Notes under the pieces: generated by a model | Database searches by the model: none | Seen by the model: only the letters and a program-made list of their open reading frames with translations | Told to the model about the DNA's origin: nothing | Shown here: one piece after another, positions 2,200-27,757 of the stretch | Numbering within the stretch: position 1 is the stretch's first letter | How the letters are laid out: each line of letters starts with the position of its first letter | Program-made: the position numbers and the translations under genes | DNA from: a virus | Virus record (IMG/VR): IMGVR_UViG_3300044960_000579 | Span: 1-50,883 of that record | DNA: 50,883 nucleotides | Reading direction: 5' to 3' (one strand)

Positions 2200-2652
2200 C
2201 TAGCGTGGACCGATGCTCGGTTCGGCTGTTGGCGCTGGCGCCGGTGTTGGCGTCGGCGCCGGCGCGATACACCGCGTACCACTCGGCAGGCTCAGCGAGC
2301 ACGCCGGGTAGGGGGTCGGCGGTAGTGGCGTCGGCGGGGGGACCTGGTAGAGCCGGCCTGGAGTGGCGAACCGGGGATCGTAGTACGGGATGAGTGTGTT
2401 CGTGGGAATGGGGGGGATCGTTGGCCAGGGTGTCGGCGTTGGCGTGCGCTCGGGTGTCGGCCAGGGTGGCATGGTGACCTGGACCTCGATCACGGGTGGG
2501 AGATTGGGTGCTGGGACAACCGGCTGCGGTGGGGGACGGAGCGTGGCCCATGAGCCGGCGATCACCCAGAGCAGGGCGACGCCGAGGAACGCAACCCCGA
2601 GCAGAAACCAGGGGGTGCGATCAGGTGATGATTGCTGAAAACGCGCTGACAT
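2200..2652 (-). CDS. Single-pass membrane protein with Pro/Thr-rich tail
   Basis: No family recognised. The 150-residue product has one hydrophobic segment near residues 14-35 (WFLLGVAFLGVALLWVIAGS), then a long extracytoplasmic-type Pro/Thr linker with PTPTPW and PTPAPAPT runs and one Cys pair. The ATG at 2652 is favoured over an upstream start because GAGGG precedes it. It is the last gene before the 36-bp repeat array. It could be a small envelope-anchored accessory or lysis protein; nothing in the sequence decides this. Confidence 0.6.
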   Translation of the reverse strand: MSARFQQSSPDRTPWFLLGVAFLGVALLWVIAGSWATLRPPPQPVVPAPNLPPVIEVQVTMPPWPTPERTPTPTPWPTIPPIPTNTLIPYYDPRFATPGRLYQVPPPTPLPPTPYPACSLSLPSGTRCIAPAPTPTPAPAPTAEPSIGPR

Positions 2653-2813
2653 CGCAATACCCTCATGAAGGAACGGGAGTGTGGGGACGTTGATGTCCCC
2701 ACACCAGTTGCTCACGTCTTGCGGCGCTCACTCTTGCATGGGCTCCCTCGCACGCCATGGTCCTCCTGAATCCCGCCGGGTCGCTGCCAATCTGCGGTCC
2801 ACGCGAACGCTAT

Positions 2814-3945
2814 GGCTCGCTCAACTCGTCCGATCCCGTTCTGTCCTCGGCTCGCTCGCAATGCACGGTCCCCTGGAGCCACCGGCTCACGCTTCGTCCG
2901 AGGTCCTCGCTGACCGCTCGGTTCGCGCGAAATTTCCGGTCCACGCCACACATGTGGCTCGCTCCCATTTTCGGTACGCTCCCTGCCGCACGACTCGCTC
3001 GCATGAGACGGCCCCCTAGCCGCGCTCGACTCACTGCCCCTGGTCGGTACACGCCGGACACCCGGTTCGCTGCATCGCCCCCGGTCCACGCATCGATCTG
3101 GGCTCGCTCACTTCAATCGGTGCACTCCTGTCAACCGGCTCGCTCGCACGCCCGTTCAGGTCGTAGTCCACGACTCGCGCTTTCGGTACGGCCCCCCTCG
3201 CCTCGTGTGGCTCGCACCACTAGTCCGGCCCACTTCCACACCACGGCTCGCGCCTTCAGTACGGTCCACTCTCCCACTATGGCTCGCTCGCCCCGTTGAG
3301 GTTCACTCAGGAGTCGAGGCTCGCTGACGAACATCGGTACCCTCACACCCCAATGGCTCGCGCCAAAGTTTCGGTCCGCTCGCCGTTCGTGGCTCGCACA
3401 GAAACGCCGGTGCTCTCACGCCCACTGGCTCGCTCACAAATGCCGGTACGCACAACATTTGCGACTCGCTAACCCCTGGCCATTCCATCGACCGTCGCGG
3501 CTCGCTCCAGCATCGCTGGTCCCCGCAGCAAACTCGGCTCGCTCGCAAGTTTTTGTCCACTCGCCGTTCGTGGCTCATTCCACATGTTGCGGTCCGCGCG
3601 GTTGATCCAATTCGCTCCACTCATGCCGGTGCACTCGGTCGATATGGCTCGCTCCCTGGTCACCGTGCACTCCCTGGGACGTGGCTCGCTCACTCACGCC
3701 GGCCCTCGTTGACCACGACTCGCTCACTGACCTCGGTGCTCTCGTGAATGACGGCTCGCTCGTCGCAACAGGTTCACTCCAGCTCGGCGACTCGCTCCCA
3801 TTCACCGGTACTCTCAGGCCACGAGGCTCGTTCTCGCGCAACGGCCCACGCATCGACGTCAACTCGCTCCCATCCGCCGGTACCCTCAGGCCAAGAGGCT
3901 CGCGCAGTTTCGCTGGTCCACGCAGCATGTACGGCTCGTGACAAC
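2814..3945. repeat. Degenerate 36-bp tandem repeat array (left part)
   Basis: About 32 head-to-tail units with a period of 36 bp (observed 35-37). Each unit has two 18-bp halves: GGCTCGCTC plus nine variable bases, then a CGGTNCNCTC-type core plus eight or nine variable bases. Core starts are readable at 2814, 2849, 2884, 2956, 2992, 3101, 3137, 3172, 3209, 3245, 3281, 3318, 3355, 3391, 3427, 3463, 3499, 3536, 3572, 3646, 3683, 3753, 3789, 3825, 3861, 3897 and 3933. Indels of one base break every reading frame, so the array is not coding as it stands. It continues at 5131-5300 beyond the TnpB element. Function unknown. Confidence 0.85.
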
Positions 3946-3946
3946 T

Positions 3947-3964
3947 CCCTCGGAAATCCGAGGG
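3947..3964 (-). other. Right-end hairpin of the TnpB element (probable guide-RNA terminus)
   Basis: Perfect 8-bp stem CCCTCGGA/TCCGAGGG with a two-base loop, 5 nt beyond the tnpB stop. In this family the 3' part of tnpB plus the right end is transcribed as the omega (re)RNA, whose guide is the sequence just outside the element. Here the guide would be GAGCCGTACATGCTGCGTGG (minus strand, 3937 to 3918), that is, repeat-array sequence. Confidence 0.6.
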
Positions 3965-3968
3965 CTTC

Positions 3969-5093
3969 TCAGGAAACCGCAACCATCGTCGCGGTGAGCT
4001 CCTGACGGCGGTGCCCCCGCCGAAGAATGTTCTTGGCCGCGTTCAGATCGCGGTCACCAACGTAGCCACAGGAGGCACAGTGATACACCCTGTCAGACAG
4101 CGTGAGCCGCACGTCGGGCAAACATCCACAGCAGCTACACGCCTGCGTTGTGTTGTGGGCGTCCACCGCGACCACCTGCACCCCGGCCCCCTCCGCCTTG
4201 GCTGCAAGGATCGCGAGAAACTGTGCCCATCCTGCGTCGTGAACCGACCTCGCCAGACGCGTTCGGCCAAGGCCGGCAACGTTCAACGCCTCAACGTAGA
4301 TCGTGCCGTACCTATCAACCAGCCTCTTCGCCACCTTGTGGTGAAAGTCCCGTCGCTGGTTCACGACCTTGACGTGGCAACGAGCAAGTCGTTCCCTGAC
4401 CTTGCGTCTCCGATTGCTTCCGCGCTGGCAGCGAGAGAGTGCGCGCTGAGCACGACGCAGTTTCGCCTGCGCCCGCCGCGCGAAGTGTGGTGTCTCAACC
4501 CGCTCACCGTCGGACGTGACGAGAAACGATGTCAATCCCAGGTCGATGCCTACCTCTGGCCGATCGGTTGCCAGCGGCGGAGCGTCGCCCAAGTCGCAGG
4601 AGACAACGACGAACCAGCGACCGGCTTCGCGCTTGAACGCAACGGTCTTGATCGTGCCTTGAACTGGCCGGTGGTATTTGACCTTGACCGTTCCAACGTT
4701 CCAAAAATAGACGCGCTTGCCGTGGAACTTGCAGCCATTGCCGTGGGTAGAAAATTCGACGGTGTCGAAACGGCCAGGTCCCTTGAACCTCGGATAGCCC
4801 GGTTTTTCGCCCGCTTTGACGCGACGGAAGAAGGCCTTGAACGCACGATCCAGCCGGCGCAGTGTCGCTAGACACGACGAATGGCTACAAACAGCCAGCG
4901 ACTCGTCTTCGCGGCGAATTTCCTTCAACTCAGCGCATTGGTCGAAGTACGTGATCGAAACCCCGCGTTGCCAGGCCAGGCGCCGGTGTTCGAGCGCGGC
5001 GTTGTAAAGCTGGCGATGCGCTTCGAGCATCACGCTCATCATCTCAGCTTGTTTCCGGTTTGGGTAGAGACGGTACTTAAAGGAGCGACGCAT
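3969..5093 (-). CDS. tnpB: TnpB RNA-guided nuclease
   Basis: Transposon-associated RuvC nuclease of the family ancestral to Cas12. It is 374 residues, a full-length size. The N-terminus (KYRLYPNRKQAEMM) is the typical OrfB_IS605 start. RuvC-I is VGIDLG (D184), RuvC-II IYVEALN (E268) and RuvC-III DRDLNAAKNI (D349). The zinc ribbon uses C319/C322 and C339/C342. All three catalytic acids are present, so it should be active. Family members cut DNA matching the guide next to an element-specific motif and promote retention of the element. The gene is flanked by repeat array, not by phage genes. Confidence 0.93.
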   Translation of the reverse strand: MRRSFKYRLYPNRKQAEMMSVMLEAHRQLYNAALEHRRLAWQRGVSITYFDQCAELKEIRREDESLAVCSHSSCLATLRRLDRAFKAFFRRVKAGEKPGYPRFKGPGRFDTVEFSTHGNGCKFHGKRVYFWNVGTVKVKYHRPVQGTIKTVAFKREAGRWFVVVSCDLGDAPPLATDRPEVGIDLGLTSFLVTSDGERVETPHFARRAQAKLRRAQRALSRCQRGSNRRRKVRERLARCHVKVVNQRRDFHHKVAKRLVDRYGTIYVEALNVAGLGRTRLARSVHDAGWAQFLAILAAKAEGAGVQVVAVDAHNTTQACSCCGCLPDVRLTLSDRVYHCASCGYVGDRDLNAAKNILRRGHRRQELTATMVAVS

Positions 5094-5130
5094 CTCCTGG
5101 CCTTTCTGTCAGCAGTGTGCATCCCGATCA

Positions 5131-5300
5131 CGACCCGCTCAAGATTCTGGTTCTCACGACTCACTCCCGCGCATCGGTACTCCCAACGGCGCGCTCTCCG
5201 TTGCCAGCTCGTTCATCAGGTTCGGCACTCTCGATCATTTACCAACTCGCTTCCATTTGTCGGTTCCCTCTGTCCAGACGACTCGCTCTCGTGCCTATGT
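5131..5300. repeat. Degenerate 36-bp repeat array (right part)
   Basis: Continuation of the 2814-3945 array on the other side of the TnpB element. Cores CTCGTTC, CTCGCTTC and CTCGCTC start near 5207, 5245 and 5281, 36-37 bp apart, with CGGT-type half motifs at 5175 and 5261. Units are more eroded near the element. The array ends just before the stop of the next gene at 5318. The 5094-5317 interval contains no convincing gene. Confidence 0.7.
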
Positions 5301-5317
5301 CCCCCCGACAATGACGG

Positions 5318-6319
5318 CTAGCTACCCCGGCGACGGCGACGCCTTTTTTCAGTATTGAGTGGCCAGCCTGGTGGTGCAATCAGATCCGTGTGTCCCAAAT
5401 GCGAGATCGCGAACGGTGCGACCACCGGCAGCCCATTGCTCTCACGCAGGACCTGCTGGAAATGCGCCAGGAACAGTTTCACGGCATAGCGCCGGGAACG
5501 CAGCTCAATCCGCCCCGGTGGCAGCATGCCGGCCTCGTACCAGGAACGCGTCGCCTGGTCCTGGATCCGGCGCTCGGCCAGGGTGCGTTCGGCAATCTCC
5601 CGGTACTGGCCGTTCTCGTTGCGCCAGATTTCGAGCGCTTTGCGTTTGGCGTAGATGTGCCCGTAGTAGCATTCGGGTCGCCGGTGGAATTTCACAAACG
5701 AGTCACCAGCTTTCCAGCAGATCACCTTCAGCCGGGCGTTGTAGGGGCGCGTCTGGCCTGGCAACCAGACCATTTGGGGGTTGAGGCCGGCGAACGACCA
5801 GACATTACCGGCTGTGACCGCGCGCTCGGGGTCGATGTGGGCGAGCAGCCCGGCGGCGATCACCGGTCCGACGCCGTACTGTGACAGTGCCCAGACACCG
5901 GCCTCGTATTCCTCGGCCCAGCTCTTCATCAGCCGGACGAGGCCGGCCTCTAACTGGATGAATTGTTTCGCCAGCCAGGAGGAGAGTTTGTGTGGTTCAC
6001 CGGCCACAGCAGAGGCACGTGCAGCGTTGCTGAGCCGGATGCGCATTTTTTGAATCTGCTCGTAAGTATCGACGTAGTAACGCATATCGCCGCGACCGAG
6101 CGTGCGCGCAGCATCGACGATATCAGCCGTGAGGCGTTCGATCAGGTCGGCAGACGGCGCGACGACCAGGTCGTGATCGTCATCAGCGACCGGCTCGGGG
6201 GCGTCGTCAATCTCCAGGTCGAGATCGACGGGCAGGCCGCCGGTCTCGGGTGGCGCGCCATTGGCGTGGCTCAGCCGCGGCGCATAGGGCCGGTCCTCAG
6301 CAGTGCGATACCTACGCAT
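5318..6319 (-). CDS. Helix-hairpin-helix protein resembling IS110-type Transposase_20
   Basis: A 333-residue protein whose centre (GVGPVIAAGLLAHID through WSFAGLNP, about residues 149-182) matches the helix-hairpin-helix DNA-binding domain found at the C-terminus of IS110/IS116 transposases. The N-terminal DEDD catalytic domain of those enzymes is absent, and no IS ends are visible, so this is probably a phage DNA-binding protein rather than a transposase. The C-terminus is very basic (KRRRRRRGS). GGGGAGG lies 7 nt before the ATG. Role unknown. Confidence 0.6.
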   Translation of the reverse strand: MRRYRTAEDRPYAPRLSHANGAPPETGGLPVDLDLEIDDAPEPVADDDHDLVVAPSADLIERLTADIVDAARTLGRGDMRYYVDTYEQIQKMRIRLSNAARASAVAGEPHKLSSWLAKQFIQLEAGLVRLMKSWAEEYEAGVWALSQYGVGPVIAAGLLAHIDPERAVTAGNVWSFAGLNPQMVWLPGQTRPYNARLKVICWKAGDSFVKFHRRPECYYGHIYAKRKALEIWRNENGQYREIAERTLAERRIQDQATRSWYEAGMLPPGRIELRSRRYAVKLFLAHFQQVLRESNGLPVVAPFAISHLGHTDLIAPPGWPLNTEKRRRRRRGS

Positions 6320-6321
6320 CG

Positions 6322-6711
6322 TTAACCTCCCCGCCGCGCATCGCGCGCGGCACGAACCAGATCGGATACCCAGCTTGATTGCGAGCGCCGTTCGGCAAAC
6401 CGTTCTGTCACCCGGTGCCGGGGACGGTGATCGCGATCGATCACGACGTCCACCGCCGCGTCGTCATGCGCCCGTCCCCCACTCGCGGAGTACTGTCGAA
6501 ATTTTGTCAAGTTTCGACAGTTGTCGCCCGGTGGTGATTGACGTGCGCTGTCAGGTCCGTACTGTCGCGACTGTAGTGCGTTACGCCACCAGGTGGGATC
6601 CGTCCAGTTGGGGTGCGCCAGGCGGCTGACCTCGCGTGCTGCTGCGAGACGTGCACCGATACGTTTCCAGTAGCGCTGGCTGAACCAGTTCGGGTGACAT
6701 AGCTTGATCAT
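6322..6711 (-). CDS. Hypothetical protein with two HPNW motifs
   Basis: No family recognised. A strong GAGGAGG site precedes the ATG at 6711. The N-terminal half carries two related blocks, LCHPNWFSQRYW and LAHPNWTDPTWW, which look like a short internal repeat. The C-terminal half is Arg-rich with low complexity. A 30-bp dyad element (6492-6521) lies inside the frame. The gene start overlaps the preceding zinc-finger frame by about 130 nt, which is unusual. Confidence 0.5.
   Translation of the reverse strand: MIKLCHPNWFSQRYWKRIGARLAAAREVSRLAHPNWTDPTWWRNALQSRQYGPDSARQSPPGDNCRNLTKFRQYSASGGRAHDDAAVDVVIDRDHRPRHRVTERFAERRSQSSWVSDLVRAARDARRGG
6492..6521. promoter_or_regulatory. 30-bp dyad element, copy 1
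   Basis: Perfect 10-bp inverted repeat ACTGTCGAAA ... TTTCGACAGT around a 10-bp centre containing TTGTCAAG. A near copy (27 of 30 positions) lies at 12227-12256. On the minus strand each centre reads CTTGACA. Likely a repressor, ParB-like or replication-protein binding site; the partner is unknown. Confidence 0.6.
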
Positions 6712-6898
6712 CGTCAACAATCCTCCTCATGCGACGCCGTGGCGTCGTGAGATGCCACCGGTTGCACAGCCGGCAGTGATAGGGGACGAGCAGGACGCGC
6801 GCCTTGCGCCGCCGCGCGATCCTGGCGACGCGTGTTGCTGCCGACCAGGTCAAATAGACATCTTTCCCGGACGGGCAGGTCTGTTCCTCGATCCACAC
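6581..6898 (-). CDS. Small zinc-ribbon-like phage protein
   Basis: The first half has the pattern CPSGKDVYLTWSAATRVA then YHCRLCNRWHLTT, a treble-clef/zinc-ribbon-like arrangement common in short phage proteins. The GTG start at 6898 is chosen because GGAGG lies 9 nt upstream. The second half (from about residue 52) is unlike a folded protein and overlaps the next gene out of frame. Either the overlap is real or a sequence error has removed the true stop. Function unknown. Confidence 0.55.
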   Translation of the reverse strand: MWIEEQTCPSGKDVYLTWSAATRVARIARRRKARVLLVPYHCRLCNRWHLTTPRRRMRRIVDDDQAMSPELVQPALLETYRCTSRSSTRGQPPGAPQLDGSHLVA

Positions 6899-6916
6899 GG
6901 CAGAACACCTCCATCG

Positions 6917-7117
6917 CTATTCCCCCGTTTCATTCCGGCGCCGGTGCAGCCAGTCCAGGAACATCACGAGCACCTCCGGCGAGATGACGGACATCACGCC
7001 CAGCGCACCACCGCTGAGCGCGAGTGTCACAGGGCTCTGCGACGTTTCGAGCGTTGCGATGATGTTCGCAGCGAATTCGGGCAGTTCGTCGTAGTCCAGT
7101 TGCTCGTCACGGTTCAT
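6917..7117 (-). CDS. Hypothetical 66-residue protein
   Basis: No family recognised. An acidic N-terminus (MNRDEQLDYDELPEF) is followed by a mildly hydrophobic stretch (VTLALSGGALGVMSVISPEVLVMFLDWL) that could be a weak membrane helix, and then a basic tail. GAGGTGG precedes the ATG at a good distance. It lies in a row of small leftward genes. Confidence 0.55.
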   Translation of the reverse strand: MNRDEQLDYDELPEFAANIIATLETSQSPVTLALSGGALGVMSVISPEVLVMFLDWLHRRRNETGE

Positions 7118-7142
7118 TGCACCACCTCAAACATTCCCATCG

Positions 7143-7751
7143 TCATCGCCAACGGCGTATCCATTCGTGGAGTTTTGGGACGGGCAACACGATGTTCGTC
7201 GCAAGCGTTTCGAGCCAGTCGGGGTCAACCGCGAGGCTACCGGTCATCTCCTCCGGCTCCACGATCGCCGTCAGCGGCGTGCCGTAGGCGATTGCATCGA
7301 TGGGTGAGGCATCCGGATCGTGCAGAGCGATGATTGCTGTACCAGGTAGCCATGGCCGGGCCTGCTGGATCATCGTCCGGTCCGGCTCCAGGATCACGTG
7401 ATCACCATAGTCACGCGCGTCGTCTGTCAGCGACATTTGCCAGTTCTCATGCATGGTCACGAGCCCGGCCTGGGCGAGCGCAAGTTCGGTCAGGCACAGG
7501 TCCGTGCTGAACGGTCCCCAACGCGTCATGCGGAACGGCGCATTGAAGATTTTGCGCATCTCCCTATAGGCAGCGTAGGCAAGGGAAAAGAGCGCCCGGT
7601 GCATGGTGATCCGGTCTACCGGACCTGGCTGGCCGCCGAGCCAGGTGATGACGACAGCGGCGTCAATCGTTGCCTCGTCAGGCGTCCGTTCTGTTCTCAT
7701 GATGTCCCAGTCTCCTGCGTCTTCAACCGTCACCCCTCTCATCTCAAACAT
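7143..7751 (-). CDS. Hypothetical protein, possibly Panacea/SocA-like
   Basis: A 202-residue product from the ATG at 7751, which overlaps the stop of the upstream gene by 8 nt; an internal ATG (IMRTERTPDEAT) is an alternative start. The segment ALFSLAYAAYREMRKIF ... RMTRWGPFSTDLCLTELALAQAGLV resembles the Panacea (SocA/DUF4065) pattern, in which a yGPfs motif precedes a helix and GLI. Panacea proteins act as antitoxins or chaperones. No toxin partner is evident next door, so the assignment is tentative. Confidence 0.45.
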   Translation of the reverse strand: MFEMRGVTVEDAGDWDIMRTERTPDEATIDAAVVITWLGGQPGPVDRITMHRALFSLAYAAYREMRKIFNAPFRMTRWGPFSTDLCLTELALAQAGLVTMHENWQMSLTDDARDYGDHVILEPDRTMIQQARPWLPGTAIIALHDPDASPIDAIAYGTPLTAIVEPEEMTGSLAVDPDWLETLATNIVLPVPKLHEWIRRWR

Positions 7752-10622: not shown

Positions 10623-11734
10623 GGCTCCTCTCCGTTCGCGATCCTGAGGAACGCTGCGATCTTGTCCCTGGCCTCCTCGTCACGTGATCGCGCTGGGGGT
10701 CGCGACGCCGAAGGTGGCGTTCGCGCTGTTTCCGGTTTGCCGGCCAGCAGCCATTTGGCACGTTGTTTCTCGATGAGGAACAGGTCGACGCCATCAACCC
10801 ACGACTGGCCGAGCAGCCAGCGCGTTTCGCGGCGGATATCGTCCGGCGTCGCGCCGGCGGCCAGCAATCGTTTGGCGACGGCCAGCTGTTTTTTGCGCTC
10901 GGCAGAACTCAGCGTCGTGACGTCGGCGCCAAGCTCATCACACAGTGCTGCGAGCAGGTCGAAGGGCTGTCCCGGCGTGTCATCCTCGCGCGCGTGCGTG
11001 TGCTCGTGCTCGTGCGCGCGTGCATGTGCGCGTGAAGGGTTTTTTGCAGCGAATTCCTTCTGAGACGCGCCAGCGTCGAAGAAGGAATTTTGCGTCTGAG
11101 ACGCGTAAGCGTCGAAGACGCACTCTGTTTCTCTCCCCTGTCTCTCTATTACTGTTTCTCTATTATTCCTCTTAATAGCTTGGTCAAATCCCTTTACCAA
11201 GGCTTGGTCAAGTTGCTTTACCAAGCCTTGGTCAAATCCCTTTACCAAGGGGGAGTTAGGAGATTTTACCTCACTGCCCGTTTGCCCGGTGCCGGCGGGC
11301 TGGTTTTCGCTGGGTTCGTCCGGTGCGATTTGGGCATGCTCTGGCGGCGCTGTGCTGGTTTCCGGCTCGCACAGGTTGAGCCGGTAGGTGGTTGGCTCGT
11401 TGCCCTTCTCAGCGGACTGCCGGCGATTGACGACGATAAACCCCCGCTCCTCCAGCGAACGAAGCGCTGCCAGTAACGTTGGCTTGCTCAACCCCACTCC
11501 ACGGTCGAGCGCTCGCCCGTCAGCGGCTTGCAGGCCGTTGAGCATCTGTGACAAGCTGATGGTCTCTTCCTGCCGGCGGAAACCGAGCGTGCGCCGGACG
11601 ATGTAGAGTAGCGCGCGCAATTCACCCAGATTCAGGTCTTGCATCAGGAAGTCGAACACAATGTCCGGAACCGGTGTAAACGCCGGGGGGACGAACCCCT
11701 TGAACCGCTCCCGTGGCGTAATCGTGGCTTCCAT
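10619..11734 (-). CDS. O-like replication initiator containing the origin
   Basis: The 371-residue protein starts with a winged-helix domain (residues 15-120: DIVFDFLMQDLNLGELRALLYIVRRTLGF, SKPTLLAALRSLEERGFI) as in phage replication O proteins. A low-complexity linker follows. Part of it, SPLVKGFDQ with repeats GLVKQLDQ and ALVKGFDQ, is simply the translation of three 24-bp DNA iterons. A His-rich HARAHEHEHTHA stretch and a helical C-terminal domain complete it, the latter probably binding the loader. The design mirrors lambda O, where the origin lies inside the gene. Confidence 0.8.
   Translation of the reverse strand: MEATITPRERFKGFVPPAFTPVPDIVFDFLMQDLNLGELRALLYIVRRTLGFRRQEETISLSQMLNGLQAADGRALDRGVGLSKPTLLAALRSLEERGFIVVNRRQSAEKGNEPTTYRLNLCEPETSTAPPEHAQIAPDEPSENQPAGTGQTGSEVKSPNSPLVKGFDQGLVKQLDQALVKGFDQAIKRNNRETVIERQGRETECVFDAYASQTQNSFFDAGASQKEFAAKNPSRAHARAHEHEHTHAREDDTPGQPFDLLAALCDELGADVTTLSSAERKKQLAVAKRLLAAGATPDDIRRETRWLLGQSWVDGVDLFLIEKQRAKWLLAGKPETARTPPSASRPPARSRDEEARDKIAAFLRIANGEEP
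11125..11249. other. Probable phage replication origin: three iterons plus AT-rich tract
   Basis: Three iterons at 11179-11201, 11203-11225 and 11227-11249 (period 24 bp) each begin CTTGGTCAA and end TTTACCAAG, an imperfect dyad CTTGGT/ACCAAG. Copies 1 and 3 are identical. The adjoining 11125-11178 tract is pyrimidine- and AT-rich and would serve as an unwinding element. Location inside the initiator gene matches the lambda-type origin. Confidence 0.8.
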
Positions 11735-12988: not shown

Positions 12989-13014
12989 TGGCGCCGGAGA
13001 TGTCTCCGGCGCCA
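12989..13014 (-). other. Strong hairpin in the exonuclease leader
   Basis: Perfect 12-bp stem TGGCGCCGGAGA/TCTCCGGCGCCA with a TG loop, 25 nt upstream of the exonuclease ATG and immediately downstream (minus strand) of pentamer array I. There is no T-tract, so it is not a classic terminator. GGCGCC hairpins also precede the other genes of this cluster. Confidence 0.6.
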
Positions 13015-13039
13015 GCATGAAATGAAGATTCCGCGCCCC

Positions 13040-13915
13040 GTCTCGCCCAGCCGGGCCTAGCCAAGCCCTGCCACGCCGAACCTCGCCGCGCCATGCCTCG
13101 ACTGCCGTGCCGTGCCGGTCCCAGCCCAGCCATTCCGGGACACGCCACGCCGCGCCCAGCCCCGACTGCCATGCCACACCGGGCCAAGCCACGACTGCCT
13201 TGCCCCGCCTAGCCAGGCCCCGCCCGGCCATGCCCCGCCATGCCGTGCCATGACTGCCCTACCAGGCCCCGCCCAGCCCGGCCGCGCCGAGTCGCACCTT
13301 GCCCTGCCAATCCGTGACTGCCACGCCTGGCCTCGCCGCGCCATGCCAGCCCATGCCATTCCACGCCACGACTGCCTCGCCGATCGCTGCCATGCCGCTC
13401 CACGCCGCGCCCAAACCTGCCGCGACTGCCTGGCCGATCCGCGCCCTGCTCCGCCCTGCCGTGCCCCGCCCACCCCAGCCGTACCGAGACTGCCCAGCCC
13501 CGCCTTGCCCGGCCATGCCAGACCAGACCTCGCCCCGCCCAGCCATTCCATGCCGCGCCACGCCGTGCCGCGCCTCGACTGCCACTCCGCGCCGCGACTG
13601 CCATGCCTGGCCCGGCCACACCGCGCCACGCCCCGCCCCGCCATGCCCTACCCCGCCGTGACTGCCTTGCCGTGCCGAACCCCGCCGCGCCGTGCCCAGC
13701 CGTGCCGTGCCGCGCCATGCCCCGACTGCCACGCCTAGCCGCGTCGAGCCGTGCCCGGCCTAGCCGATCCTTGCCTGTCCGTGACTGCCGGTCCTTGCCA
13801 CACCAGGCCCCCCACGCCTCGCCATGCCACGCCGCGCCGGGCCCTGACTGCCGTGCCCCGACTGCCTCGCCGGGCCGGGCCCTGCCCAGCCGTGCCTAGC
13901 CTTTCCGCGCCGTGT
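13040..13915. repeat. Pentamer repeat array I (NNGCC with GACTGCC punctuation)
   Basis: About 870 bp of five-base units of the form NNGCC (GGCNN on the minus strand), with the two N positions variable. At intervals a GACTGCC resets the phase by four bases. Its starts are 13100, 13164, 13193, 13252, 13316, 13370, 13424, 13488, 13577, 13596, 13660, 13724, 13783, 13846 and 13860. Nearly all gaps equal 5n+4, most often 64 (12 pentamers plus 4). All frames stay open because the units rarely form stops, so long open frames here are not genes. No terminator or promoter was seen inside. Confidence 0.85.
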
Positions 13916-13934
13916 CTGGTCGCGTGACAGCGTG

Positions 13935-14651
13935 TCACGCGACGCGCTCGTTGCCGGTGACACCGGCGACGTTCGCCAGCCATTCGTCGATCGCCGCCCG
14001 CAGCAACCGAAGCTCCTCGACAAATTTCTGGTCCTGCGGGTTCGCCGTCCGCGCCTCTAGTTGCAGCCGCAGTTGTCGCGCTGTCAGCAACAAGGACGAG
14101 CCCGGCGCGATGTCGTGCGCGTGTTCCTGCAACGGACTGAGTTTCAGCCCAGAAAGGTGCACAAAACTCCGTTTCAACGGGATCGGCTCGCCGGTTTTCT
14201 GCGAGACCGCAATGCGCACGCGCAACGCTTGGACTTTCTGCTCGGGAACCTTCAGAACGACCGAAATCGACTTCTGGTCGAGCCCTGCACGGCTCAGCAG
14301 ATCGATGCACCGAATCTGGTCGATCCGATCCAGCCGCCGCCCGTGCGTTGCGTTCTGCGCGACCGCATCGGCGATCAAATCTGCCTCGGATGGATACGTC
14401 CGCAGAATGACATCAATCGCCGCCGTATCGCCTACGACGCGCCGATACGCCCGGACGCGATGCCAGCCGTCAACAATCCGCAATGTCTTCGCATCAACGA
14501 CCGGCGGCGGTAGAATTGCTCCAGTTCCCAGGGCATCGGCGAGCCGGCGAATATGATCGTCGTCAACCGCGTGTCGCGGGTAGATACTGGAATCTTCAAT
14601 GAGCAATGCGAGCGGAACCGTTTCCTTTTTGTCTGGAATTTGCCTACTCAT
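13935..14651 (-). CDS. ParB-like nuclease-domain protein
   Basis: A 238-residue protein with a ParB/Srx-type N-terminal domain: LALLIEDSSIYPRHAVDDDHIRRLADAL, then LRIVDGWHRVRAYRRV near residues 57-72, with DGWHR in place of the ENIQR/GERR box. A helix-turn-helix-like middle (ISVVLKVPEQKVQALRVRIAVS) follows, then a helical tail. ParB-fold phage proteins bind or nick DNA, or use CTP to slide. Being flanked by two pentamer arrays, it is a natural candidate to bind them, but this is speculation. Confidence 0.8.
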   Translation of the reverse strand: MSRQIPDKKETVPLALLIEDSSIYPRHAVDDDHIRRLADALGTGAILPPPVVDAKTLRIVDGWHRVRAYRRVVGDTAAIDVILRTYPSEADLIADAVAQNATHGRRLDRIDQIRCIDLLSRAGLDQKSISVVLKVPEQKVQALRVRIAVSQKTGEPIPLKRSFVHLSGLKLSPLQEHAHDIAPGSSLLLTARQLRLQLEARTANPQDQKFVEELRLLRAAIDEWLANVAGVTGNERVA

Positions 14652-14689: not shown

Positions 14690-14754
14690 GTCCGATACCG
14701 GTTGTGATTGGCGAGTGCTCTGTGGCGGTCCTCGCGCTGTCATGACGTCCGCCA

Positions 14755-15482
14755 TTGCTACGCCGTGCCCTGCCGTGCCGATCCGGGCCGAACCTCACCG
14801 TGCCTGGCCCAGCCATGACTGCCGCGCCTGGCCGGACCCGGCCCCGCCTCGCCCCGCCATGCAACGCCCGGCCTGACCGTACCGTGCCAGGACTGCCTCG
14901 CCCCTGCCAAGCCATGCCGCGCCAAGCCGCGCCCGGCCGCGACTGCCAGGCCTCACCATGCCGGGCCAGACCGCTCCTGGCCTCCCCCTGCCATACCCGG
15001 CCGCACCAGACCTCGACTGCCACGACTGCCTTGCCGTGCCCTGCCCCACCATGCCCCTCCAAGCCATGCCTTACCGCGCCGCGCCTCACCGCGCTATGCC
15101 GTGCCATGACTGCCTTGCCTCGCCCCGCCGTGCCCCGCCGCGCCTGGCCTCGCCGTACCACGCCGGACCGCGCCACGACTGCCTCGCCGGGCCGGTCCTC
15201 GCCAAGCCCTGCCACGCCATGCCCAGCGTCTCCGTGACTGCCTCGCCGTGCCGCACCGGACCGTTCCCCGCCCCGCCTGACCCGGCCGCGCCCAGCCTAG
15301 CCGGACCGCGACTGCCTCGCCGTGCCACGCCATGCCATGCCGGGCCGAGCCCTGCCCTGCCATGCCGATCCGCGACTGCCCAGCCCCGCCTAGCCGCGCC
15401 ATGCCCTGCCCGGCCAAAACCTGCCGCGACTGCCTTGCCGCTCCGGGCCTCACCCGACCGCGCCACGCCATGCCAGGCCCCG
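14755..15482. repeat. Pentamer repeat array II
   Basis: Same NNGCC structure as array I. GACTGCC starts at 14817, 14891, 14941, 15015, 15024, 15108, 15177, 15236, 15310, 15374 and 15428; gaps are 74, 50, 74, 9, 84, 69, 59, 74, 64 and 54, all but one equal to 5n+4. The block 15008-15118 is nearly identical to 16472-16582 in array III, so parts were copied between arrays. The stretch holds no gene. Confidence 0.85.
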
Positions 15483-15485
15483 CCG

Positions 15486-16217
15486 CTACCGGTTGCCCCG
15501 CGTCGCGAGCGAGTATGCCGCCAGCACTTCGCGCGCGAGGCCATCGAAAGGCTCTGGCGTCGCAAGCGCCGCAGCCTGCGCCTCAGCGGTCGATTGCTCG
15601 ATCAGTTCGAGCAGGCGCGGATCGTCCGGCGCGACCACCTCGAACGTGCCGAAGTCACCGCCCGCCCACGGACAGAACAGTCCGATGCCGACCGAGCGAC
15701 CGGCTTCGGATAATGCCCTGATGGCGGTTCCGACCGAGACGAGCTGCTGCAGGGCCTGCACGTTGAGCCGCATGCCCCAGCGCGGGAAGATGGCCCGCGA
15801 TCGGACATACAGCCGGTCATCCCATTTCGCAAACGAGATGTGGATGCGCGGCAGGCCGTACAGCGGGAGTAGCTCCCGACCGAACCGCACGCACCGCTTC
15901 AGCCGCGCCGGGGGGACTTCATTCAAGCGCTCGCCGGCCCGCATGGTAGGCAACCAGTATGCAGACGCGCTAAATCCAAGCAGCGTCGGGCTGCCATCCG
16001 GCATTTTGTAGACGGACTCGCGGTAGTCTTCGATCGGATCGTCGATGATGACGACGTTCCCGACCCGAACCGTATTCCTGCGGCGGAAGCATTCGATAAC
16101 TCCGCTGTTAGCTATCCTGCCTGATAGCAGCGGTGTTAGACCAAGGATGCCGACCTGGACGACGTCGATCCAGGTTTCCTTGTCAACGACGGTAGCCTGC
16201 TGCAGTTGAGCTTGCAT
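15486..16217 (-). CDS. Conserved phage protein, paralog A
   Basis: A 243-residue protein paralogous to the gene at 16687-17463: VGILGLTPLL, DYRESVYKMPDGSPTLLGF, LLPLYGLPRIHISF, TRAIFPRW-like SRAIFPRWGM, and SEAGRSVGIGLFCPW..GDFGTFEVV. In related phage proteins the last block reads GVGEWRPEKxGxFG; here EWRPE has been lost, so this copy is diverged. The function is unknown; such genes often sit near RecT-type recombinases. ATG at 16217 has GGAGGAAACG upstream. Confidence 0.75.
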   Translation of the reverse strand: MQAQLQQATVVDKETWIDVVQVGILGLTPLLSGRIANSGVIECFRRRNTVRVGNVVIIDDPIEDYRESVYKMPDGSPTLLGFSASAYWLPTMRAGERLNEVPPARLKRCVRFGRELLPLYGLPRIHISFAKWDDRLYVRSRAIFPRWGMRLNVQALQQLVSVGTAIRALSEAGRSVGIGLFCPWAGGDFGTFEVVAPDDPRLLELIEQSTAEAQAAALATPEPFDGLAREVLAAYSLATRGNR

Positions 16218-16247
16218 CGTTTCCTCCAATTGCGACCCCTGTCGCTT

Positions 16248-16279: not shown

Positions 16280-16640
16280 TGGTCTTGCCGCGCCGTGCCG
16301 GCCCCGCCGTGCCCGGCCTCGCCTCGCCACGCCCTACCGGGCCAAGCCATGCCGCGACTGCCATGCCAGGACTCGCCGCGCCGCGCCTCGCCAGGCCGCA
16401 CCTCGCCCCGCCACGCCTCGCCAGGCCGTGCCTCGGCTGCCACGCCCGGCCTGACCGCGCCCGGCCGCGGCAGACCTCGACTGCCACGACTGCCTTGCCG
16501 TGCCCGGCCCCACCATGCCCCTCCAGACCATGCCCTACCGCGCCGCGCCTCACCGCGCCACGCCGTGCCACGACTGCCTCGCCCCACCCGGCCTCACCGC
16601 TCCCGGCCACGCCATGCCGTGCCGTGCCGTCACTGCTATG
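16280..16640. repeat. Pentamer repeat array III
   Basis: Third and shortest NNGCC array. GACTGCC starts at 16355, 16479, 16488 and 16572, with gaps of 124, 9 and 84, all 5n+4. The segment 16472-16582 matches array II almost base for base, including the double GACTGCC and the following 84-bp interval. It lies between the two paralogous genes; no gene inside. Confidence 0.85.
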
Positions 16641-16686: not shown

Positions 16687-17463
16687 CTATTGCCCCGGCA
16701 GCGTCGGCTGCATGCCGCGCGACTCAGCACTCTCGAGGAACGACTCAAGCAGGCTGGCCGTCTCATCGTCGTAGGGCTCCGCGTCACGCAGCGCCGCAGC
16801 CTGCGCCTCAGCGGCGGATTCCGCCATCAGCTCGAGCAGGCGCGGATCATCGTCGGGAACGATTTCGAACATTCCGAACGCACCAGCACCCTTCTCTGGG
16901 CGCCATTCGCCAACGCCGACCGTGCGACCGCTCGCGAAGAGCAGCCGGCTGACGGCGACCGGCGTAATCAACGGCGCAACCGCCTGGACCTCGAGGATCA
17001 TGCCCCAGCGCGGGAAGATGGCGCGAGTGCGGATATCCGGTGTCCGGGCGGGATCAGAATTCCGAACCACGCTCATGTGCAACTTCGGAACGCCGTACAG
17101 TGGCAGCAAATCACCGAGAACGGTCACCAAACGTTTGATTTTGGCGCCGGTAACGCCGGGAATGTCCGATGCTGCCGTCACCATCGCGCCCTTGAACGCC
17201 GACGCCAGGAAACCGAGCAGTGTCGGTCCACCGGCTGGAAGGACATAGACTGAATCGCGAAATTCGCTTATCGGGTCGTGCTTGAGGGTGCTCGCGCGTT
17301 GCGCGCGGTTTTTCGCCGGCGGCGGGTTCAGCAGGGTTTCCTTCGCCTTGCGGCTCATCCGGTTCACGATGAGCGGGCTCAGACCCAAGATGCCGACCCG
17401 CAGCACGACGGTTTCGATATTGGGAATTTCGATAACGTCTTGAGTTTTCCGTGGAGTAGGCAT
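16687..17463 (-). CDS. Conserved phage protein, paralog B
   Basis: A 258-residue protein with the full family pattern: VGILGLSPLIVNRMSRKAKE near residue 24, EFRDSVYVLPAGGPTLLGFLASAFKGAMV, LYGVPKLHMSVVR, RTRAIFPRWGMILEV, FASGRTVGVGEWRPEKGAGAFGMFEI. The glycine-rich GVGEWRPEK..GxFG block is the hallmark. No enzymatic motif recognised. The ATG at 17463 is preceded by GAGGAAA; an upstream GTG lacks support. It directly follows the recT gene, suggesting a role in recombination or DNA protection (inference). Confidence 0.75.
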   Translation of the reverse strand: MPTPRKTQDVIEIPNIETVVLRVGILGLSPLIVNRMSRKAKETLLNPPPAKNRAQRASTLKHDPISEFRDSVYVLPAGGPTLLGFLASAFKGAMVTAASDIPGVTGAKIKRLVTVLGDLLPLYGVPKLHMSVVRNSDPARTPDIRTRAIFPRWGMILEVQAVAPLITPVAVSRLLFASGRTVGVGEWRPEKGAGAFGMFEIVPDDDPRLLELMAESAAEAQAAALRDAEPYDDETASLLESFLESAESRGMQPTLPGQ

Positions 17464-17496
17464 GTCTATTTTCCTCGTTGCGGCCACTGCCGCGTT

Positions 17497-25066: not shown

Positions 25067-25705
25067 ATGGCCCTGATTCCCATGGCTGAGGCAGCCAGGC
25101 GCCTCGGATACCATCCATTTGCAATTCGCCGGGCGCTCGAAAAGCAAGGCATCCCCCTCGTGCGCCAGGGGGATGCCTGGTACGTTGACGAGGCTGATCT
25201 CGCACGAGCCGAGCACCGGCCCAGGCACCGGCCACCCGCTGGCGCCACCTCACGCGCCCTGCTGATCCATGCTGCTCTTGCTGCCGGTGGCCGGCCAGGG
25301 TTCATTGCTCATACCCTGGCCTACCGGTGGGGCGAGGAATGGCTGACGACGCCAGCGCTGCGTGAGGCGCTGGGTATCCCCACGGACGACGCGGGCACCG
25401 AGACGCTCGCACGTCTCGCGCTCTGCCTGAAACCACGCACGACCGATGACATCGTGCGTATCGCCACGGAATTTGGCATCGAGCCCTACCGGCTGCGTGC
25501 CGTGCTGGTGCCACGCCTGTCGGATGCGCTCGACCAGGCAGCGCTCGGCGCCGAGCAGAACGCGCACCAGGCGATCGCCGACGGCGATCCCGAGGGGGCC
25601 GAGCTCGCCCTGCGTATCGCCGCAGCGTGTCAGCGTCTCGCGGACACGCATCGTGCACGCAGGTTGATCGAGGAAAATCCCGAGTTGGATCCGAACCAGC
25701 GCTAA
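25067..25705 (+). CDS. MerR/excisionase-type HTH protein upstream of the Cas12m-like gene
   Basis: A 212-residue protein. Residues 1-50 form a winged HTH (MALIPMAEAARRLGYHPFAI, then RRALEKQGIPLVRQGDAWYVDEADLARAEH). A helical region of about 150 residues follows, with two similar halves around TPALREALGIPTDDAGTETLARLALCL and EFGIEPYRLRAVLVPRLSDAL. The ATG at 25067 has GGAGG upstream. It sits 44 bp before the Cas12m-like start and is probably co-transcribed with it. Possible regulator of the effector operon; no partner function is known. Confidence 0.65.
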   Translation: MALIPMAEAARRLGYHPFAIRRALEKQGIPLVRQGDAWYVDEADLARAEHRPRHRPPAGATSRALLIHAALAAGGRPGFIAHTLAYRWGEEWLTTPALREALGIPTDDAGTETLARLALCLKPRTTDDIVRIATEFGIEPYRLRAVLVPRLSDALDQAALGAEQNAHQAIADGDPEGAELALRIAAACQRLADTHRARRLIEENPELDPNQR

Positions 25706-25710
25706 CGAGA

Positions 25711-25738
25711 GCCCCGTCCGCGGGCGTGTGGATGGACC
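25711..25738 (+). repeat. Diverged CRISPR-repeat copy before the Cas12m-like gene
   Basis: 28 nt, matching the downstream array repeat at 25 of 28 positions (changes at positions 4, 10 and 22). The GTCC/GGAC stem is kept. It ends one base before the GGAGG ribosome site (25739-25743) of the effector gene. It may be an array fossil or a crRNA-like regulatory element. Confidence 0.8.
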
Positions 25739-25749
25739 GGAGGTGTGAT

Positions 25750-27300
25750 ATGGCATTCGGACGTACGGGGGCAACGGGTGAGGTCCGTATCTGGCGTTAC
25801 GGCGTCGCACCGGCGGCACTGCGCCGGCACGGCAGCGAGCACCTCGACCTGCTGGTGGACCAGATGCGCCGCCGGCATAACCTGTGGAACACGCTCGTTG
25901 CGATCGATCGCGAAATTCGCGCCCTGCAGCAGCCGGTGATCGAGGCCGGTCGTGGCGAGGATGGCCGGCTCACGCCTGAGGCTCGCCGGCGGTTGCAGGA
26001 AATTGAGGAATCGTTCCGGGACCGGATCAACGCGGCCTGCCGCGAATCCGGCTGTTTCTGGACCAACTCGCAGGAGGTCAAACGCGACTGGCAGGCAGCA
26101 CGGCGCCGTGGCGAGGTCCGCTTCCATCGCTGGGACGGCTCGGGCGGGTTCCGGATTTTCCTGACGAAACTCCCAGCGCCAGCCGAGCTCTGGGATGAGG
26201 ACGGGCGCTACGTCCGGTTCCGGCGACGTGGGTCACGTGACACCGATGCCTGGATCGACATTCGCGTTGCCTCGACCGGGCCAGGTGGCCGGATTCCGGT
26301 ATTCGCGTCGCTGCCGGTCACGCTGCACCGGCCGTTGCCACCGGACGGCGTTGTGCGCAGCGCTGGCGTCGTGCGCGAGGTGATCGCCGGCAAACCACGC
26401 TGGCACGTTGACCTCATGATTGAGCGCACGCCAGGCTCGTGGCGCACGAGCCCAGCACCTGGACGTGGGCGCATCGCCCTCGACCTCGGCTGGCGCGTCC
26501 GGTTGGATGGGAATGGACAGCCGGCTGGTGTGCGCGTGGCTGCCTGGCTGGACGATACCGGCCAGTCGGGTGAGCTCGTGCTTGATGCGTGGCTGTTCCG
26601 GGATAGCCAGAAAATCGAGGATTTGCAGTCGATTCGCGACACCATGCTCAACAACGTGCGCGCGCAACTCGCTGCCTGGCTGGCGACCAATCCGATCCCC
26701 GAGTGGTTGCGCACCGAGACGGCGACGATTGCGCAATGGCGCAGCCCTGGCCGGTTCGTGCACCTCTGGCGGGTGTGGCGCGACCAGCGATTCGAGGGTG
26801 ATGCTCCCGGGTTCGCGTTGCTCGATGATGGGCGTGCGAAATGGCGCGACAACCTCGGGTTTGTGCCACGCGATCACCACCTGTGGACGTGGCAACAGAA
26901 CCTGCGTGACGAAATGCTGCACCAGCGCCAGCACGCCTACCGGACGTTCGCTGCGTGGGTTGCGCGCACCTACGCCGAGGTGGTGCTGGAGGACATGGAT
27001 CTTCGCCCGATGGTGCGCGTCCAGGAACCTGAGGATGCTGGACGCGAGATGCCCCAGCCGGTACGCCGGATGCGTCAACTGGTGGCACCGGGGATGTTGC
27101 GCCAGGATGTTGTCGCAGCGTGCACGCGTGAGGGACGCCGGATCGTGCTCGTGCCGGCGGCGAACACGACGCGCACCTGCCACCAATGTGGGCATCAGCA
27201 GGATGTTGGCGCTGAGTTGTTCCACCGGTGCGAGGCGTGTGGTGCGCTGTGGGACCAGGATATGAACGCGTGCCACGAGTTGCTGCGGCGGGCAGCGTGA
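25750..27300 (+). CDS. cas12m: Cas12m-like (type V-M/V-U1) CRISPR effector
   Basis: A compact 516-residue RNA-guided effector. The following blocks align by eye with Cas12m as I recall it: FHRWDGSGGFRIFLTK (125-140), PVTLHRPLPPDG (189-200), RIALDLGWRVR (241-251), ATIAQWRSPGRFVHLWRVW (325-343), APGMLRQDVVAACTREGR (446-463) and DQDMNACHELLRRAA (502-516). RuvC acids are D245, E414 (VVLEDMD) and D504. The zinc ribbon is C477/C480 and C494/C497. Known Cas12m binds DNA and silences without cutting and has non-canonical RuvC residues; this protein keeps D-E-D, so cleavage is possible. ATG follows GGAGG. No cas1, cas2 or other cas gene is present. Confidence 0.85.
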   Translation: MAFGRTGATGEVRIWRYGVAPAALRRHGSEHLDLLVDQMRRRHNLWNTLVAIDREIRALQQPVIEAGRGEDGRLTPEARRRLQEIEESFRDRINAACRESGCFWTNSQEVKRDWQAARRRGEVRFHRWDGSGGFRIFLTKLPAPAELWDEDGRYVRFRRRGSRDTDAWIDIRVASTGPGGRIPVFASLPVTLHRPLPPDGVVRSAGVVREVIAGKPRWHVDLMIERTPGSWRTSPAPGRGRIALDLGWRVRLDGNGQPAGVRVAAWLDDTGQSGELVLDAWLFRDSQKIEDLQSIRDTMLNNVRAQLAAWLATNPIPEWLRTETATIAQWRSPGRFVHLWRVWRDQRFEGDAPGFALLDDGRAKWRDNLGFVPRDHHLWTWQQNLRDEMLHQRQHAYRTFAAWVARTYAEVVLEDMDLRPMVRVQEPEDAGREMPQPVRRMRQLVAPGMLRQDVVAACTREGRRIVLVPAANTTRTCHQCGHQQDVGAELFHRCEACGALWDQDMNACHELLRRAA

Positions 27301-27343: not shown

Positions 27344-27493
27344 GCCTCGTCCACGGGCGTGTGGGTGGACCGTAGGCCTGCCTCGACCATGCTCCGCAGC
27401 ACGCGCCTCGTCCACGGGCGTGTGGGTGGACCGAGGAGCGTCGCGCCCAGGTCGGCCAGGTCCCGGCCTCGTCCACGGGCGTGTGGGTGGACC
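27344..27493 (+). CRISPR. Mini CRISPR array: three 28-nt repeats, two 33-nt spacers
   Basis: Identical repeats at 27344-27371, 27405-27432 and 27466-27493 (period exactly 61) begin GCCTCGTCCACGGGCG and end TGTGGGTGGACC, with an internal GTCCAC/GTGGAC dyad. Spacers are 27372-27404 (starting GTAGGCCTGCCTCGACC) and 27433-27465 (starting GAGGAGCGTCGCGCCC). A 43-nt leader separates the array from the Cas12m-like stop; the last repeat abuts the stop of the convergent holin gene. No full match to either spacer was found in the window. Confidence 0.93.
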
Positions 27494-27757
27494 TTAGCCG
27501 CGTGCCGTCGTTTTCACACCCGAGTAGAGCCCGCTCGCCGCGAGGCCAGCGAGCAGTCCGCCGAGTGCCACGCGTGCCCAGTTCCCGTCAAATCCACCCA
27601 GGACATTGCCCCAGGCTGCCAGCAGTGCCAGCACCACGCCGGCAATCAGGGCAAACACCGGCGCCCAGCGCACCGGCAGTCCAGCACGTTTTGCAACCTC
27701 AACGACCCCGATCGTGACCGGGCTCAGGATCAGTGCCGCACTCGTGAGTTCGTCCAT
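27494..27757 (-). CDS. Holin-like membrane protein
   Basis: An 87-residue protein with two clear membrane helices (VRWAPVFALIAGVVLALLAAW near 29-49, and ARVALGGLLAGLAASGLYSGV near 61-81) and a weaker N-terminal one, ending in a short basic tail. Size, helix pattern and position near the endolysin gene suit a phage holin that permeabilises the inner membrane. The terminal stop touches the CRISPR array. Confidence 0.75.
   Translation of the reverse strand: MDELTSAALILSPVTIGVVEVAKRAGLPVRWAPVFALIAGVVLALLAAWGNVLGGFDGNWARVALGGLLAGLAASGLYSGVKTTARG

What the first reader, a model, noticed from the sequence alone, without database searches (positions are those of the whole stretch)
2814..5300. 36-bp half-constant, half-variable tandem array
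More than 32 units share GGCTCGCTC and CGGTNCNCTC cores, each followed by about nine free bases. Period is held at 36 with one-base slips, so selection appears to act on spacing of the cores and not on the codons. A few consecutive in-frame units translate as G/D-SL repeats, so decay of a repeat-protein gene is the main alternative.
Basis: seen in the sequence. Interest (0 to 1): 0.8.

Follow-up and report, generated by a model that had tools for sequence, protein, structure and literature searches.

The report
Phage TIGR guide-RNA array with TasA
The strange half-constant, half-variable repeats are a TIGR array, a recently described kind of RNA guide store, sitting beside its partner protein TasA in a phage and split by a jumping gene; the kind is known, but its natural targets are not.

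Summary
On the minus strand, two 10-nt repeats, GAGCGAGCCR (edge) and GAGNGNACCR (loop), alternate every 18 bp and are separated by 8-nt variable spacers. That makes about 38 units of 36 nt. Directly beside the array, in the same orientation, lies an intact 333-aa ORF (5318-6319) that encodes the Nop-domain protein TasA. It passes the curated NCBIfam TIGR-Tas cutoff, and its fold matches solved TasH and TasR without a nuclease domain. The same array motif occurs in at least 119 viral stretches. A TasA relative was found in 82 of those loci, always in the array's orientation. No frame is open, so a decayed repeat-protein gene is ruled out. New here: spacers are inherited as edge-A-loop-B pairs between phages (p = 2e-10), which fixes the unit; and a 91%-identical relative has a ParB-like gene in place of the whole locus. 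No targets were found. Side finding: the same phage carries a second, apparently undescribed array type, pentanucleotide-phased and linked to a Cas7-fold protein.

The parts
5131..5289 (-). tas-proximal block of the TIGR array (about 4.4 units), between tasA and the tnpB element
   Evidence: repeat profile hits at 5288, 5270, 5232, 5196, 5184, 5166, 5157, 5140
2722..3934 (-). main block of the TIGR array (about 34 units): edge GAGCGAGCCR, 8-nt spacer A, loop GAGNGNACCR, 8-nt spacer B
   Evidence: unit phase
3935..5130 (-). IS200/IS605-type solo tnpB element inserted in the array (ends approximate; hairpin CCCTCGGAAATCCGAGGG near 3947-3964 at the tnpB 3' side)
   Evidence: array phase breaks here; junction sequences
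3969..5093 (-). tnpB, 374 aa
   Evidence: Pfam OrfB_IS605 1.1e-26 and Cas12f1-like_TNB; NCBIfam guided_TnpB 289.6 bits vs cutoff 100
5318..6319 (-). tasA, 333 aa, solo Nop-domain TIGR-associated protein (N-terminal 60 aa predicted disordered, no nuclease domain; homologues begin near residue 57)
   Evidence: NCBIfam NF052498 TIGR_Tas_endo 8.1e-46, 156.7 bits vs cutoff 100; PDB TasH and TasR hits; 82 array-linked homologues

Best explanation
A TIGR-TasA locus carried as exchangeable cargo by a tailed phage. Shown here: array architecture, TasA homology and fold, strand relation, unit phase, absence of coding, tnpB insertion. Inferred from the published systems: the minus-strand transcript is cut in the edge repeats into 36-nt tigRNAs (half edge, spacer A, loop, spacer B, half edge). 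A TasA dimer holds each tigRNA by the box C/D-like ends shared by both repeats (GAG...CCR). Spacers A and B then pair with opposite strands of one DNA site of about 16 bp, of the form A followed by reverse complement of B. With no nuclease, the likely effect is binding and bending of target DNA, that is blocking transcription or replication of a competing element or steering another enzyme, not cutting.
For: Architecture matches the TIGR definition: two alternating 8-12-nt repeats, short spacers, 36-nt unit, array beside the tas gene (PMC12045711) against the window. Adjacent ORF: NCBIfam TIGR_Tas 156.7 bits, cutoff 100. Profile against PDB: TasR 9mty 2.9e-26, TasH 1.2e-14. Model: Foldseek top hits all TasH/TasR, Z 20.0 to TasH, 17.9 to TasR, 12.9 to IS110, 7.3 to Nop5. 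82 of 82 homologues on the same strand as the array, most within 100 nt. TasA in 46 of 49 whole array contigs. Spacer pairs co-inherited across the loop repeat 47/97, across the edge repeat 12/122, Fisher p = 2e-10.
Against: No RNA data. Box D in these repeats is GAG, not UG. No rho-independent terminator was found at the array's end. Repeats in this phage are more worn than usual (47% exact edge cores; median 83%) and the array is broken by tnpB, so it may be partly inactive. No target found: A+rc(B) sites are not enriched over shuffled pairs.
Confidence: 0.95

Rival explanations
1. A true TIGR locus that is decaying: after tnpB inserted, repeats drift and the array is no longer processed along its length.
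For: tnpB splits the array. Exact edge cores 47% against a median of 83%. No tnpB relative found in any other array locus, so the insertion looks specific to this phage.
Against: tasA is intact and keeps the invariant family residues; repeats stay in phase far beyond chance; several other arrays are equally worn.
Confidence: 0.25
2. A cis-acting DNA array: protein-binding sites (iterons, a partition or packaging site) where core spacing matters and the rest is filler.
For: Spacing conserved and coding absent; in a 91% relative a ParB-like gene occupies the same place.
Against: The 'filler' is inherited in fixed pairs across the loop repeat, which a site array does not predict; constant linkage and orientation with a Tas protein.
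Confidence: 0.04
3. Remains of a gene for a protein with 12-residue repeats.
For: 36 is a multiple of 3; short stretches read as G/D-S-L repeats.
Against: Stops in all six frames of 212 array runs, slips of one base, no intact frame in any relative.
Confidence: 0.01

Closest known systems
TIGR-TasA systems (Faure et al. 2025, PMC12045711; e.g. Flavonifractor plautii FpTIGR)
   Same: Solo Nop protein, dual-repeat array, 36-nt unit, phage or mobile-element setting.
   Different: About 38 units (paper: most often 5-15), 8-nt spacers with 10-nt repeats, GAG...CCR repeat ends, tnpB inserted in the array.
Salicola phage CGphi29 TasH (SpTIGR)
   Same: Only cultured phage protein found by sequence (26% identity); also a 16-nt combined spacer.
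   Different: It has an N-terminal HNH nuclease; the window protein has none.
IS110/IS621 bridge-RNA transposases
   Same: Nop-like domain, Z 12.9.
   Different: No DEDD catalytic domain and no single bridge RNA; a regular array instead.
CRISPR arrays
   Same: Constant repeats with variable spacers.
   Different: Two alternating 10-nt repeats, 8-nt spacers, no cas genes alongside.

Membership tests
TIGR-Tas | Two distinct alternating 8-12-nt repeats separated by about 9-nt spacers, 36-nt unit | tested here: met
   10-nt edge and loop repeats, 8-nt spacers, 18/36 phase, shuffle test
TIGR-Tas | Adjacent Nop-domain Tas protein | tested here: met
   NCBIfam cutoff passed; TasH Z 20.0 and TasR Z 17.9; linkage and orientation 82/82
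TIGR-Tas | Box C/D-like ends shared by edge and loop repeats (UG...CCA, may diverge but covary) | tested here: met
   Both repeats share GAG...CCR; box C close to CCA, box D diverged from UG
TIGR-Tas | Edge-A-loop-B is the functional unit | tested here: met
   Spacer pairs co-inherited across the loop repeat, 47/97 against 12/122
[quoted passage not shown]
   None found by consensus scan at the array end
TIGR-Tas | Processing to 36-nt tigRNA; RNA-guided DNA binding | not testable with these tools
   needs RNA-seq and binding assays
TasA subtype | Nop domain without N-terminal nuclease | tested here: met
   Model residues 1-60 disordered, rest all-helical Nop fold; most homologues 262-320 aa beginning near residue 57
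TasH / TasR subtypes | N-terminal HNH or RuvC domain | tested here: not met
   no such domain in the model and no nuclease domain match in Pfam
TnpB (insert 3969-5093) | RNA-guided TnpB family domains | tested here: met
   guided_TnpB 289.6 bits vs cutoff 100
CRISPR array | Single repeat of about 25-36 nt with spacers of similar size, cas genes alongside | tested here: not met
   two 10-nt repeats, 8-nt spacers; array-flanking genes are tasA and tnpB

The most novel reading that the evidence does not exclude
This one phage carries two different guide-like arrays: the TIGR-TasA array, and a second, undescribed system in which a Cas7-fold protein (phrog_4652) with its partner phrog_15946 uses arrays of 49-64-nt units built of pentamers GGCNN, giving guides whose specificity lies in two bases out of every five. 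The second is present beside the gene in about 72 of 80 viral loci, probably including cultured mycobacteriophages. The two may be parallel solutions for RNA-guided competition between phages.
Probability: 0.35. Interest if true: 0.92.

Novelty: new member of a known kind. Interest (0 to 1): 0.55.

Why it matters
TIGR systems were described only in 2025; what they target, how arrays grow and why phages keep them is open. This locus adds: (1) a large set of viral arrays sharing one repeat type; (2) comparative evidence that the 36-nt edge-A-loop-B block is the unit of inheritance, gained, lost and reordered whole, which gives a handle on array evolution without known adaptation genes; (3) a matched pair of phages with and without the locus, useful for tests; (4) an array invaded by TnpB, another RNA-guided nuclease family. 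PHROGs files this protein family under 'transposase' (phrog_4285), so TasA is probably under-annotated in phages.

Tried and rejected
Rfam: no family at gathering score in the window or in three array loci. Coding array: rejected. Targets: exact or 1-mismatch A+rc(B), rc(A)+B and control sites in all fetched loci and about 1.2 Mb of further phage contigs, with pairing shuffles; no enrichment and no exact self-target. Two whole-collection scans for the predicted sites of recurrent units gave 4 and 41 hits; the 41 fall mostly in unrelated contexts. ParB beside tasA, as reported for some TasA loci: neither the window's nor the relative's ParB-like protein has a relative in the array loci. TnpB in other TIGR arrays: none. 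Literature for the core sequence, pentamer arrays or Cas7-like phage proteins with such arrays: nothing relevant. The motif scan was built on this repeat consensus, so other TIGR repeat types are not sampled.

Full report
Observation. The window is a 50.9-kb IMG/VR virus record with terminase genes at 6-1960 and a major head protein at 47.6-48.5 kb. The repeats described at 2814-5300 are there. On the minus strand they read GAGCGAGCCR-N8-GAGNGNACCR-N8, 36 nt per unit. A profile finds 37 repeats in the array blocks, 23 in phase; 200 shuffles never exceed 8 and 1. The profile density is 16.9 per kb against 0.06 per kb elsewhere in the window. The middle of the interval, about 3935-5130, is an inserted tnpB element.

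Relatives. The repeats there are often cleaner than in the window. Beside the arrays lies a protein related to window ORF 5318-6319. It was found in 82 loci at 26-51% identity, always on the strand that reads GAGCGAGCC, and in 46 of 49 whole contigs.

Identity. The ORF matches solved TasH and TasR by sequence and exceeds the curated cutoff of NCBIfam TIGR_Tas. The AlphaFold model (pLDDT 82.8) is an all-helical Nop-type fold, Z 20.0 to TasH, 17.9 to TasR, 12.9 to IS110 and 7.3 to Nop5. Its first 60 residues are disordered and hold no nuclease domain. It is therefore TasA. The definition of TIGR systems used here is that of Faure et al. 2025 (PMC12045711).

Unit phase. When two arrays share a spacer that follows GAGCGAGCCR, the next spacer is the same in 47 of 97 cases; after GAGNGNACCR in 12 of 122 (Fisher p = 2e-10). 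So GAGCGAGCCR is the edge and GAGNGNACCR the loop, and spacers travel as pairs. Close relatives keep shared units in order; more distant ones hold the same units in changed order. Related arrays usually share only a minority of spacers.

Locus as cargo. A relative with 91-92% DNA identity over the terminase region (G001, 40,054 bp, with an end overlap of about 127 bp seen, hence probably complete) lacks array, tnpB and tasA. The place is taken by a 222-aa ParB-like gene (ParB_N 1.8e-6).

Mechanism. From the published systems, and so inferred here: a transcript of the minus strand is cut in the edges to 36-nt tigRNAs, held by a TasA dimer, with spacers A and B pairing to opposite DNA strands. 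I derive the site form A+rc(B) from the reported 3' overhangs. Without a nuclease the effect would be binding and bending. No target could be found.

Not coding. Stops occur in all six frames of 212 array runs. Two frames have fewer than a column-preserving shuffle predicts, but even those have one stop per 40-120 codons.

Second array. At 13.0-13.9, 14.75-15.5 and 16.28-16.63 kb the phage has arrays of pentamers, GGCNN on the gene strand, broken by 4-nt steps so that units are 4 plus a multiple of 5 nt long. The neighbouring ORFs 15486-16229 and 16687-17487 belong to phrog_4652. A model of a relative from another locus has the Cas7/Csm3 fold (Foldseek 4.1e-6, Z 10.6). A protein-only search for relatives found 5-nt-periodic arrays in 72 of 80 loci, against 1 of 80 terminase loci. 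One of the 72 (L363) is a homopolymer run and should be discounted. Where GGCNN arrays are strong enough to orient, they lie on the gene's strand in 38 of 39. In five loci that are probably the cultured mycobacteriophages (record lengths match), the gene is 98-100% identical while whole 54-59-nt units are gained or lost. I know of no description of this; the literature searches found none.

Verdict. TIGR-TasA: already a known kind, new member, confidence 0.95. Activity of this worn and interrupted array, and any target, remain open.

Noticed in passing
window 13010-13930, 14750-15500, 16280-16630; ORFs 15486-16229 and 16687-17487 (-): A second array type: pentamers GGCNN (gene strand) with 4-nt steps, units of about 49-64 nt, beside a Cas7/Csm3-fold protein (phrog_4652; Z 10.6). 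72 of 80 viral phrog_4652 loci carry such 5-nt-periodic arrays (one of them a homopolymer artefact) against 1 of 80 controls. Possibly an undescribed guide system.
   Followed up: partly
L346, L348, L349, L351, L352 (about 3440-3990): Probable cultured mycobacteriophages with a 98-100% identical phrog_4652 gene differ by gain or loss of whole 54-59-nt pentamer-array units: unit-level turnover.
   Followed up: partly
L209 9658-10218 and twelve further loci: phrog_15946, a small protein of unknown function, lies beside the pentamer array, usually between it and the phrog_4652 gene, in 13 loci, always on the gene strand.
   Followed up: partly
window 13935-14651 (-): ParB-like protein (phrog_1033, 1.2e-11) flanked on both sides by pentamer arrays; related proteins lie within 10 nt of such arrays in L210 and L224.
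   Followed up: no
window 25627-27300 (+): 557-aa ORF with a Cas12f1-like TNB domain (4.6e-11): a second, larger TnpB/Cas12f-like protein in the same phage.
   Followed up: no
window ~2630-7165 against G001 (L121, L320, L321): The whole TIGR locus is absent from a 91%-identical relative, where a ParB-like gene occupies the site.
   Followed up: yes
PHROGs phrog_4285: This family is named 'transposase' but the window TasA matches it at 6e-33: probably Tas proteins misnamed in phage annotation.
   Followed up: no
window 27344-27497: Tandem repeat of period 61, 2.5 copies, 82% matches.
   Followed up: no
window 11178-11270: Tandem repeat of period 24/48 with inverted halves GCTTGGTCAAATCCCTTTACCAAG.
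   Followed up: no
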